From Nanobdellota archaeon (GTDB lineage Archaea; Nanobdellota; Nanobdellia; UBA10117; ARS21), in assembly GCA_014239585.1 (NCBI GenBank), contig JAAZYP010000004.1, positions 1 to 32,176 on the forward strand: DNA of 32,176 nucleotides, written 5' to 3'. A program made the position numbers and the translations under genes. How positions within the stretch are numbered: position 1 is the first letter of the stretch; each line of letters starts with the position of its first letter. This document shows, piece by piece, positions 373-8,394 of the stretch. The notes under the pieces are model-generated. The model did not search any database. It was given only the letters and a program-made list of their open reading frames with translations, and had not been told where the DNA came from.

Positions 373-1104
373 TTAATACTTTGCGATAATATCGTCTTCA
401 ATAAAATTTAGTTTTCCAGGTAAAATTAAACAAAACGGCGCTTTCCCGAAATTAATTTTTGAGAGTTCAGCCTGATTACCATAGCTAATTAATGCGTCTT
501 TCATTCCTAATCGAGAACATCCAATAAATTTGGTTTTTTCAGAAATGTTTGACTTTCTAGATTTGGAGATTTCTAAAATTCTGGAAATTGCGTCTGAAAT
601 TGAAAGAAAAGATTCGTTTTCCGGATCTAAATCAAGTAAACATAAAGTATGTGCATCAATGGATTGATTCTGTTCCAAATAATCAAAGAATGATTCAGGT
701 TTATAACTTTCTGTCCAAAATGGAATTGATGCCGTCTTTCCGAATTTGTAAAGTTGTAATCCGGTTTCTGCGATGGTAGTCATGATGGATGGCGCATGAA
801 TAATTTCAACTTTAATGTTTTTCTTTTCTGCTTCCTGTAAGATTTCTAAATGAGTTGTTGCAGAAAGCGGATCTCCATAAACTAAAAGAGATGTATTTTC
901 TTTCAGAAATGATTTTTCTTCTTCCACTCCTTTTCGATTTAAGATTTGGACTTTTTTACTAATTAAAGATTCCAGTTCCGCAATTTTAAAATTTGAAAGA
1001 GATGTGTAACTCTCCAAGTAAACTTCGTTTGAATTTTTCAGTGCGTCTAATGCATTTAACGATAAATCTTTTAGTGTATGTCCCAATCCGATTATATACA
1101 TCAT
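373..1104 (-). CDS. dphB: diphthine synthase (diphthamide biosynthesis methyltransferase)
   Basis: N-terminus MMYIIGLGHTLKDLSLNALDAL plus YLESYTS, GDPLSATTH and internal HAPSIMTTIAETGLQLYKFGKTASIPF are characteristic of archaeal DphB. Confidence 0.93.
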   Translation of the reverse strand: MMYIIGLGHTLKDLSLNALDALKNSNEVYLESYTSLSNFKIAELESLISKKVQILNRKGVEEEKSFLKENTSLLVYGDPLSATTHLEILQEAEKKNIKVEIIHAPSIMTTIAETGLQLYKFGKTASIPFWTESYKPESFFDYLEQNQSIDAHTLCLLDLDPENESFLSISDAISRILEISKSRKSNISEKTKFIGCSRLGMKDALISYGNQAELSKINFGKAPFCLILPGKLNFIEDDIIAKY

Positions 1105-1125
1105 TTAAATGCTCCTCCAGAGTTA

Positions 1126-1133
1126 TTTTAAAA
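1126..1133. promoter_or_regulatory. palindromic TATA box TTTTAAAA shared by divergent dphB and trm5
   Basis: Centre 1129.5; starts at 1104 (-) and 1154 (+). Confidence 0.65.
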
Positions 1134-1153
1134 GATTACGAACAGTCAAAATT

Positions 1154-2161
1154 ATGACTTTAGTTTTAAAAGTTAGTAAAAAGAATGGTGAAGATGCAAA
1201 AACTGATTTAATTGCTAAAAATTACTTTAATGGACTTTACAAACCCGATTCAGATAAAAATCATATTTATTTTCCCGTTACTTCTGAATTTAAAACTAAA
1301 TTGGGAACTTTTGAAAATAGAAACTTATCAAAATTCAAATCTAAGCCTGCAAGTTTAAGAGAATTATTTATGAAAGTTTTGCCGATAAAACTCGTTGATG
1401 ATGTTCGTCGGAGTTATGATTTGATTGGAGATATTGCAATTATTGAAATTCCTGATTCATTAAAAAAATATGAAAAGGTTATTGCAAATTCGCTTCTGAA
1501 AACCAATTCTAAAATAAAAGTTGTTGCGAAAAAACCTTCTAAAATTGACGGTAAATACCGAATTCGTAAATTAAAAATTCTGGCTGGTGAAAAACGAACC
1601 ACTACAAAATATAAAGAATCTGATTGTTTGTTTGAATTTGATTTGAATAAAACTTATTTTTCACAAAGATTAAGTAATGAAAGATTGAGACTTGCAAATA
1701 AAGTTAAAGGATCAGAAAAGATTTTAGTTATGTTTTCCGGAATAGCACCATTCGGAATTATTATTGCGAAAAAACATCCATTCGCAAAAGTATTGAATAT
1801 TGAATTGAATCCTAATGCAGTAACTTACGCCAAGAAAAATATTGAATTGAATCACTTAGAATCTCGTGTTTTCTCAATTAAAGGTGATGTTAAAATTGAG
1901 ATTCCGAAATTGAAAGAAAAATTTGATAGAATTATTATGGTTCTACCTCATGATAATGAAAAATTCTTATCTGACGCATTAAAAGTTACTAAAAATGGGA
2001 CTAAAATTCATATGTATACTATTCAGGAAGAATCAAATATCAACAAATTTAAGAAGGAAATTTGTTCGAATCATCCGATTCGAATTGTCAATACCGTTAA
2101 GGCCGGAGATTATGGACCTAAAATGTGGCGATATTGTCTAGATATGAAAGTTATTGAATAG
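1154..2161 (+). CDS. trm5: tRNA (guanine37-N1)-methyltransferase, Trm5/Met10-like
   Basis: Archaeal Trm5-like architecture with a MFSGIAPFGIIIAKKHPFAKVLNIELNPNAVTYAKKNIELN SAM-binding region and a late MVLPHD motif. The ATG at 1154 is preferred over 1109 because it lies 24.5 nt from the TATA centre. Confidence 0.88.
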   Translation: MTLVLKVSKKNGEDAKTDLIAKNYFNGLYKPDSDKNHIYFPVTSEFKTKLGTFENRNLSKFKSKPASLRELFMKVLPIKLVDDVRRSYDLIGDIAIIEIPDSLKKYEKVIANSLLKTNSKIKVVAKKPSKIDGKYRIRKLKILAGEKRTTTKYKESDCLFEFDLNKTYFSQRLSNERLRLANKVKGSEKILVMFSGIAPFGIIIAKKHPFAKVLNIELNPNAVTYAKKNIELNHLESRVFSIKGDVKIEIPKLKEKFDRIIMVLPHDNEKFLSDALKVTKNGTKIHMYTIQEESNINKFKKEICSNHPIRIVNTVKAGDYGPKMWRYCLDMKVIE

Positions 2162-6400: not shown

Positions 6401-6679
6401 TTATCCAAATGCTCTTCGAACATCAGACGTTTCTACGGTTTGAACTCCATCAACTTCTGCTAATTGTGCTTCTAATGGTTCAGTATCTCCAATTGATTCT
6501 TCCATTAAAAAATTTAATAGAATTGACTTCAAACCAAATGCCAAAGGTTCTTCTTTAACATTTACTAAATCTGAATTTGAATATTTTTTACAAATATCTA
6601 CACATTCTTTGGTAATTTTTTCAAAATTTGCTTCAGGACTTCCCGGAATAACTTTCATAATTACTGCTACTTGTGCCAT
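6401..6679 (-). CDS. ef1b: translation elongation factor 1-beta
   Basis: MAQVAVIMKVIPGSPEANFEKI..., EEPLAFGLKSILLNFLMEES, typical of archaeal aEF-1beta. Confidence 0.92.
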   Translation of the reverse strand: MAQVAVIMKVIPGSPEANFEKITKECVDICKKYSNSDLVNVKEEPLAFGLKSILLNFLMEESIGDTEPLEAQLAEVDGVQTVETSDVRRAFG

Positions 6680-6834
6680 TATAATCCCTTATACCCGCAT
6701 TTACATTCGTACTTAATTGAATTTGTTCTTGCGAATCCCGATCGAGTTAATACAGTTCCACATTTTGGGCACGGAAATGAAACCGTTCCATTTTGATTCA
6801 CTACATTTGCTCCTGTTGAAATACAAACTTTCAT
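6679..6834 (-). CDS. small zinc-ribbon protein (HVO_2753-like), 51 aa; missed by ORF track
   Basis: Manual translation MKVCISTGANVVNQNGTVSFPCPKCGTVLTRSGFARTNSIKYECKCGYKGL*; Cys-rich CPKCG and CKCG knuckles; TAATG 1-nt overlap with EF-1beta; ATG 25.5 nt from TATA centre. Confidence 0.9.
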   Translation of the reverse strand: MKVCISTGANVVNQNGTVSFPCPKCGTVLTRSGFARTNSIKYECKCGYKGL

Positions 6835-6855
6835 GAATTGTGCTACTAAAAATCA

Positions 6856-6863
6856 TTTATAAA
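6856..6863. promoter_or_regulatory. palindromic TATA box TTTATAAA shared by divergent zinc-ribbon and COG2426 genes
   Basis: Centre 6859.5; starts at 6834 (-) and 6884 (+); A-rich BRE-like flanks on each strand (AAAAATCA / CAAAAAC). Confidence 0.7.
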
Positions 6864-6883
6864 GTTTTTGAACTAAATTTAAT

Positions 6884-7324
6884 ATGCTAGAATATGTATC
6901 TACATTCATCGCTGGTGGAACTCCGTTGATTGAAGGGCGACTTGCAATTTTAGGTGCAGCTGCATCCGGATTGAATTTGTGGTATGCATTTCCACTAGCA
7001 TTACTTGGAAATTTGATTATTATTCCAATAACTTTTAAATTATTGAAACTGGCACGGTTTTCAGATACAATTCACAAATTTTTTGGTAAAAGGATTCAGA
7101 AAAAAATTAATGATTATCGACGGGAATTTGAGGAATGGGAAGAATTGGCACTTCTAATTTTTACTGCAATTCCATTACCTTTTAGTGGCGCATATTCTGC
7201 AATTTTAGCTTCTCGAATTTTGAATCTGAAACGAAGAAAGTCTGCATTTGTAATTGGACTCGGAGTAATAATTGCTAATGTTTTGGGTCTACTTTTAAGT
7301 TTGGGATTGATTAAATTATTATGA
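6884..7324 (+). CDS. small multidrug-export family membrane protein (COG2426-like)
   Basis: Several TM segments; PLIEGRLAILGAAASGLNLWYAF and FTAIPLPFSGAYSAILASRIL are typical of the family. Confidence 0.8.
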   Translation: MLEYVSTFIAGGTPLIEGRLAILGAAASGLNLWYAFPLALLGNLIIIPITFKLLKLARFSDTIHKFFGKRIQKKINDYRREFEEWEELALLIFTAIPLPFSGAYSAILASRILNLKRRKSAFVIGLGVIIANVLGLLLSLGLIKLL

Positions 7325-8394
7325 TAAAGGATAAACCTGAAGACTTTATTGTTGATGAAGTTACAAATATTAAACTGAAAAAATCAGGTGATCAAGTTTA
7401 TGTTCTTCTTACAAAAACTAATTGGACCACTCAACGAGCGATAAATGCAATTGCTAGAGCATTGAGAATAACAAAAAGAAGAATTGGTTTTGCTGGAACC
7501 AAAGATAAAAAGGCAATTACAAGTCAAGTCATTTCAATTTTTAAGAAAACAAAGGAAGATATTGAAGAATTGAATATGGCGGATATGGATCTCAAGGTTT
7601 TAGGATATGGAGATGATCCTATTTCATTAGGTCATTTAACTGCAAATAAATTTAAAATTAGATTATATGTTTCTGATGACGAAACAAAACTTATCAAAAA
7701 ACGAATTCCTGAAGTTCGAAAAGGATTCATAAATTATTTTGGACAACAACGATTTTCATCTGGCGGAACTGCTAAAATTGGAAAAGAGATTTTAAAACGT
7801 GATTTTGAAAATGCAGTAAAAATTATTTTATCTGAACATTCTCGACAAGATGAATTTGATAAATTTGTGTTGGATAACTGGAAAGATTGGCCTGCAATTT
7901 TAAAAGAATGCCCCAGATTTTTTGGAATCGAAAGTAAAGTTCTAAATTATTTGGTTAAGAATCCAACAGATTATGCAGGTTCAATTAGAAAAATTGCAAA
8001 ACCTTTACGACGATTATATATTCATGCTTTTCAATCATTGATTTGGAATCGTGCAGTTTCAAGTATACTACTTGGAACTGACATCGAATTGCCGGGACAT
8101 AAAGTGATTATACCTGAAAAACTTCCGAAAAATGAAGAATTGCCTCTTCCCGGATTAGATACTAATTATTCAACTAAATTTGGAAAATTATTGATGAAAG
8201 AATTAAAGATTGAAAAAATTGATATTGATGCATTTAATCTAAAATCTATGCCTGAACTGAAGAGTTGGGGTGCAAATCGAAATATAATCACTAAACCACG
8301 AAATTTGAAATTCTCTAAAGATATATTATCGTTTGAATTAGATAAAGGAGTGTATGCGACCGTATTAATCAGTCATTTAGTCCATAAGACTTAA
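7321..8394 (+). CDS. truD: tRNA pseudouridine synthase D
   Basis: IKDKPEDFIVDEV N-terminus, GFAGTKDKKAITSQ, NYFGQQRFSSGGTAKIGKEILKRDFENAVK. Confidence 0.95.
   Translation: MIKDKPEDFIVDEVTNIKLKKSGDQVYVLLTKTNWTTQRAINAIARALRITKRRIGFAGTKDKKAITSQVISIFKKTKEDIEELNMADMDLKVLGYGDDPISLGHLTANKFKIRLYVSDDETKLIKKRIPEVRKGFINYFGQQRFSSGGTAKIGKEILKRDFENAVKIILSEHSRQDEFDKFVLDNWKDWPAILKECPRFFGIESKVLNYLVKNPTDYAGSIRKIAKPLRRLYIHAFQSLIWNRAVSSILLGTDIELPGHKVIIPEKLPKNEELPLPGLDTNYSTKFGKLLMKELKIEKIDIDAFNLKSMPELKSWGANRNIITKPRNLKFSKDILSFELDKGVYATVLISHLVHKT

What the first reader, a model, noticed from the sequence alone, without database searches (positions are those of the whole stretch)
6832..6886. Second divergent pair with the same 50-nt geometry around palindromic TTTATAAA
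The zinc-ribbon ATG (6834, minus) and COG2426 ATG (6884, plus) are again exactly 50 nt apart, with perfect palindrome TTTATAAA centred at 6859.5 (25.5 and 24.5 nt). Both flanks carry A-rich BRE-like sequence on their own strand (AAAAATCA and CAAAAAC). Two unrelated loci with identical geometry suggest a compact bidirectional core promoter module rather than chance.
Basis: partly seen in the sequence, partly recalled or inferred. Interest (0 to 1): 0.72.

Follow-up and report, generated by a model that had tools for sequence, protein, structure and literature searches.

The report
Shared two-way archaeal promoter (BRE-TATA-BRE)
Two neighbouring gene sets that point away from each other in this tiny Nanoarchaeota-type archaeon very probably share one TATA box that can start transcription in either direction, an arrangement already shown in Pyrococcus; here it is conserved across relatives and visible in bare sequence because the messages seem to start at the start codon.

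Summary
ATGs lie at 6834(-) and 6884(+), with TTTATAAA at 6856-6863, 25.5 and 24.5 nt away. The first pair (1104/1154, TTTTAAAA 1126-1133) has the same geometry. The best explanation is an archaeal bidirectional core promoter, BRE-TATA-BRE, serving two leaderless transcripts. In a 231-kb sample of this genome the TATA box of first genes centres at -23 to -29 from the ATG whatever the neighbour's orientation, so two leaderless genes sharing one box must have ATGs about 50 nt apart. In 10 of 13 orthologous loci of the order, over five families, the box stays midway (ATG distance 49-55), and spacer conservation is concentrated in the box and a BRE-like flank on each side. Shared boxes carry a second A-rich flank that one-way promoters lack. 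The module is a known kind: Pyrococcus furiosus BRE-TATA-BRE promoters with starts 49-50 bp apart (in vitro, 2019). No transcription data exist here, so firing in both directions is inferred.

The parts
6856..6863 (.). Shared palindromic TATA box TTTATAAA, centre 6859.5
   Evidence: conserved in 9 of 10 orthologous spacers, TTTAAAAG in the tenth
6848..6855 (+). A-rich BRE-like flank for the plus direction (AAAAATCA)
   Evidence: the corresponding columns are A/G-rich in 10 orthologues, with an invariant A five bases before the box
6864..6870 (-). A-rich BRE-like flank for the minus direction (CAAAAAC on the minus strand)
   Evidence: T-rich on the plus strand in most orthologues, with an invariant T at column +10
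6679..6834 (-). Small zinc-ribbon protein, HVO_2753 family (51 aa); predicted leaderless start at 6834
   Evidence: Pfam PF07754, E 4.2e-10; sequence
6401..6679 (-). Elongation factor 1-beta, next gene after the zinc ribbon (stop and start overlap, TAATG)
   Evidence: Pfam PF00736
6884..7324 (+). COG2426-type small multidrug export (VTT-like) membrane protein; predicted leaderless start at 6884
   Evidence: Pfam PF06695, E 2.3e-23
7321..8394 (+). TruD tRNA pseudouridine synthase, overlapping the end of the COG2426 gene
   Evidence: Pfam PF01142
1126..1133 (.). Shared TATA box TTTTAAAA of the first divergent pair
   Evidence: a central TTTTAAAA or TTTTATAA box with ATG distance 49-51 in three relatives of the same family
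373..1104 (-). Tetrapyrrole-methylase-family protein (diphthine synthase, DphB-like), minus gene of pair 1
   Evidence: Pfam PF00590
1154..2161 (+). Trm5/TYW2-type tRNA methyltransferase, plus gene of pair 1
   Evidence: Pfam PF02475

Best explanation
The 50-bp spacer is a bidirectional archaeal core promoter. TBP binds the symmetrical TTTATAAA. TFB then docks on one or the other A-rich flank (BRE) and sets the direction, so RNA polymerase starts about 25 nt away, at or next to the start codon, giving leaderless mRNAs for zinc ribbon-EF1beta on one side and COG2426-TruD on the other. Because one TBP-TFB-polymerase complex covers the box, the two directions should be mutually exclusive at any instant but both served over time. 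Shown here: the sequence anatomy, the genome-wide TATA-to-ATG distance, the conservation, and the second BRE-like flank. Inferred: leaderlessness, firing in both directions, and exclusivity.
For:: geometry. TATA hexamers before first genes cluster at -23 to -29 (mode -26) for both tandem and divergent genes, and are nearly absent before operon-internal genes; 10 of 13 orthologous loci of the order (families f1, f3, f5, f6, f7) keep the box 23.5-28.5 nt from both ATGs; the invariant columns are the box (nearly) plus one A column upstream and one T column downstream; in two genomes where 500+ nt separate the genes (L015, L021), the zinc-ribbon gene keeps its own TTTATAAA 25.5-26.5 nt upstream; shared boxes have 3.41 T per 6 downstream bases against 2.23 for genome-matched one-way promoters (sd 0.19, p about 5e-5); central TATA in 22 of 26 pairs at 47-56 nt against 7 of 122 at 60-140 nt; 14 of 37 TTTATAAA in the own sample lie 21-31 nt before a called start, against 1 of 90 for AAATATTT; the genome encodes TBP and one TFB. 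(PMC6640164): the same module proven in P. furiosus, start sites 49 bp apart in vitro.
Against: No transcript data. The central-TATA figure is partly forced: if either gene has a TATA near -25, the midpoint of a 50-nt spacer has one. The spacing peak depends on this genome and G042. The minus-direction BRE is weaker than the plus one (mean 4.5 against 6.0 purines of 7), so one direction may dominate. In one order member (L014) the genes are 107 nt apart and no TTTATAAA was found.
Confidence: 0.85

Rival explanations
1. The box is a one-way promoter for one gene only. The other gene is transcribed from a different start, and the midpoint position is a by-product of genome compaction.
For: Weaker minus-side BRE; the palindromic core is no more common at shared than at one-way promoters.
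Against: Conserved box distance to both ATGs across five families and a second conserved flank; a second BRE-like flank specific to shared promoters. No second TATA hexamer at the right distance is seen in the 50-bp spacer.
Confidence: 0.1
2. The palindrome is an operator for a dimeric regulator, not (only) a TATA box.
For: It is a perfect palindrome between divergent genes, the classic place for an operator.
Against: The same 8-mer lies 21-31 nt before a called start in 14 of 37 sampled copies, too many unrelated genes for one regulon. The position matches the genome-wide TATA position, and no regulator gene is part of the pair.
Confidence: 0.03
3. Chance coincidence of two tight divergent pairs in an AT-rich genome.
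For: AT-rich DNA (32% GC) makes TATA-like words common.
Against: TATA words before genes are confined to about -23 to -29; TTTATAAA is rare genome-wide (52 against 175 for its reversed word); conservation in orthologues.
Confidence: 0.02

Closest known systems
Pyrococcus furiosus bidirectional BRE-TATA-BRE promoters (PMC6640164, 2019)
   Same: Single symmetrical TATA box, BRE on both sides, two starts about 49-50 bp apart, direction set by TFB.
   Different: There the evidence came from head-to-tail genes where the second product is a presumed non-functional antisense RNA, and transcripts are not predominantly leaderless. Here both products would be mRNAs of conserved genes and the starts seem to coincide with start codons, so the ATG spacing itself reveals the module.
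Symmetry-driven divergent promoters of bacteria and archaea (Warman et al. 2021, Nat Microbiol 6:746; not held, known here from its citation and from memory)
   Same: Symmetry of the core element lets the polymerase start on both strands.
   Different: The bacterial form uses the -10 element with starts typically 18 bp apart, not TBP/TFB.
Leaderless archaeal promoters (e.g. Haloferax volcanii, Sulfolobus solfataricus)
   Same: Promoter elements so close to the gene that the initiator overlaps the start codon.
   Different: Usually described as one-way promoters; the present case is two back to back on one box.

Membership tests
Archaeal bidirectional BRE-TATA-BRE promoter | One TATA box midway between two divergent starts about 50 bp apart | tested here: met
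   Box 25.5/24.5 nt from the ATGs; conserved in 10 of 13 orthologous loci. Starts are start codons, not mapped TSSs.
Archaeal bidirectional BRE-TATA-BRE promoter | BRE-like A-rich element on both sides of the TATA box | tested here: met
   AAAAATCA and CAAAAAC; conserved in orthologues; class-wide second flank
Archaeal bidirectional BRE-TATA-BRE promoter | Transcription starts on both strands from the one box | not testable with these tools
   No RNA data for this genome
Leaderless archaeal promoter | TATA box about 25 nt before the start codon | tested here: met
   (mode -26, range -23 to -29 for first genes)
Leaderless archaeal promoter | mRNA 5' end at the start codon | not testable with these tools
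   Needs TSS mapping
Archaeal TBP/TFB transcription machinery | TBP and TFB encoded in the genome | tested here: met
   TBP on C11 and a second TBP-like gene on the small contig C7; one TFB on C11

The most novel reading that the evidence does not exclude
In leaderless DPANN archaea the shared-TATA module is a selected, order-wide conserved device that couples two head-to-head operons (here zinc ribbon-EF1beta with COG2426-TruD; DphB with Trm5, mostly translation-related genes) through competition of two initiation complexes for one box, rather than a passive result of compact genomes.
Probability: 0.2. Interest if true: 0.5.

Novelty: new member of a known kind. Interest (0 to 1): 0.33.

Why it matters
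It suggests that two-way promoters, known in archaea mainly from antisense transcription, can be the conserved promoter of two operons of widely kept genes. In leaderless archaea they can be read from bare sequence as an ATG-to-ATG distance of about 50 nt, which gives a way to list them in uncultured lineages and to ask whether the two directions compete.

Tried and rejected
Exact 50 nt as a constant: rejected, spread 49-58. Palindromy of the TATA core as the marker: rejected, equal in one-way promoters (half-sites of 3 to 6 bp p > 0.3). Universal enrichment of the spacing: rejected; without own and G042, 8 pairs at 49-54 against 29 in flanks, p = 0.47, and G034/G044 instead have a cluster at 37-46 nt, mostly with off-centre boxes. 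A wider origin of the zinc ribbon/COG2426 pair: no convincing zinc ribbon was found beside COG2426 in 31 class-level loci outside the order. The alignment could not be used for a named-genome scan; a single-protein scan gave one named relative. Papers: Warman 2021 is not held.

Full report
What is there. The sequence shows minus ATG at 6834 and plus ATG at 6884 with TTTATAAA at 6856-6863. The minus side is a 51-aa HVO_2753-type zinc ribbon followed by EF1beta; the plus side is a COG2426-type membrane protein followed by TruD. The earlier pair, a DphB-like gene at 1104(-) and a Trm5-like gene at 1154(+), has TTTTAAAA at 1126-1133 and the same 25.5/24.5 nt distances.

Why 50. I took ten stretches of the same genome (with the window, 231 kb) and called ORFs. 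TATA hexamers upstream of first genes sit mostly at -23 to -29 from the ATG, mode -26, for divergent and tandem genes alike, and are nearly absent before genes inside operons. That is the signature of leaderless transcription. If two leaderless divergent genes share one box, their ATGs must be about 50 nt apart. Of 42 divergent pairs in the sample about a quarter lie at 45-58 nt, most with a TATA-like box near the middle, so two among the window's seven divergent pairs is expected.

Is the box shared, or is this just compact DNA? First, orthologues. The zinc ribbon and COG2426 genes lie close together and divergent in 13 of 13 order-level loci that hold COG2426. In ten, from five families, the ATGs are 49-55 nt apart and the box is midway (nine TTTATAAA, one TTTAAAAG). 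In two (L015, L021) some 540-570 nt separate the starts and the zinc-ribbon gene keeps a TTTATAAA at 25.5-26.5 nt; in L014 the starts are 107 nt apart. Aligned on the box, most spacer columns are poorly conserved. The fully invariant columns outside the box are an A five bases before it and a T three bases after it, each within a run of moderately conserved A/G-rich (upstream) or T-rich (downstream) columns. That is a BRE-TATA-BRE footprint. The ten sequences are not independent (three from f1, three from f6, two from f3).

Second, the class of shared boxes. In 14 genomes (stretches), shared boxes carry 3.41 T in the six bases downstream against 2.23 in genome-matched one-way promoters (null sd 0.19; p about 5e-5, though the two directions of one pair are not independent). 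The TATA core itself is no more palindromic than at one-way promoters. So the second BRE, not the palindrome, marks the two-way class.

The first pair. In three relatives of the same family (L139, L140, L145) the DphB/Trm5 starts are 49-51 nt apart with a central box; in other families they are closer (about 29-38 nt) or not adjacent. The geometry is thus conserved at this locus too, but only within the family.

Limits. The excess of divergent spacings at 49-54 nt is 20 against 35 in 24 flanking positions over all 14 genomes (p = 0.004), but 8 against 29 without this genome and G042 (p = 0.47). G059 has TATA boxes at the leaderless position yet no pair at 47-56 nt out of 30. The 85% of 47-56-nt pairs with a central TATA (22 of 26, against 7 of 122 at 60-140 nt) is partly forced by leaderlessness. 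My gene caller is simple and start codons are unverified; the zinc ribbon itself is not among the pairs listed, so the target locus does not inflate the counts.

Mechanism. TBP binds the near-symmetric box and TFB on one BRE sets direction (review PMC7289017). P. furiosus has this BRE-TATA-BRE arrangement, with a 49-bp distance between the two starts proven in vitro and an antisense peak about 50 bp upstream genome-wide (PMC6640164). This genome encodes TBP and TFB. I infer that the spacer serves both operons by alternating initiation; the two directions should exclude each other at a given moment because the complexes share the box. That last step is untested.

Lineage.

Verdict. A real, conserved example of a known promoter type. 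The useful twist is that leaderlessness turns it into an ATG-to-ATG spacing readable from sequence. Interest is modest.

Noticed in passing
whole genome G000; sample window + L001-L010: TTTATAAA occurs 52 times against 175 for its reversed word AAATATTT, and in the sample only 8 of 37 copies lie inside genes against 77 of 90 for AAATATTT: the palindromic TATA word looks avoided in coding DNA.
   Followed up: partly
L142, L143, L147, L149 (DphB/Trm5 orthologues); L118-L137: In other families the DphB/Trm5 ATGs are only about 29-38 nt apart, and G034/G044 have ten divergent pairs at 37-46 nt; there off-centre TATA-like boxes appear interlocked, each close to the other gene's start codon.
   Followed up: partly
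pooled divergent pairs of the sampled genomes: Divergent spacings look bimodal: a group at 50-59 nt and a broad rise from 70 nt, as if two separate boxes need at least about 22 nt between centres.
   Followed up: no
window 373-2161 and 6401-8394: Both shared-box pairs join mostly translation-related genes (DphB-like with Trm5; zinc ribbon-EF1beta with COG2426-TruD).
   Followed up: no
G000:C7:180-635: A second TBP-like gene sits on a small contig besides the one on C11; it could be a second TBP or contamination.
   Followed up: no
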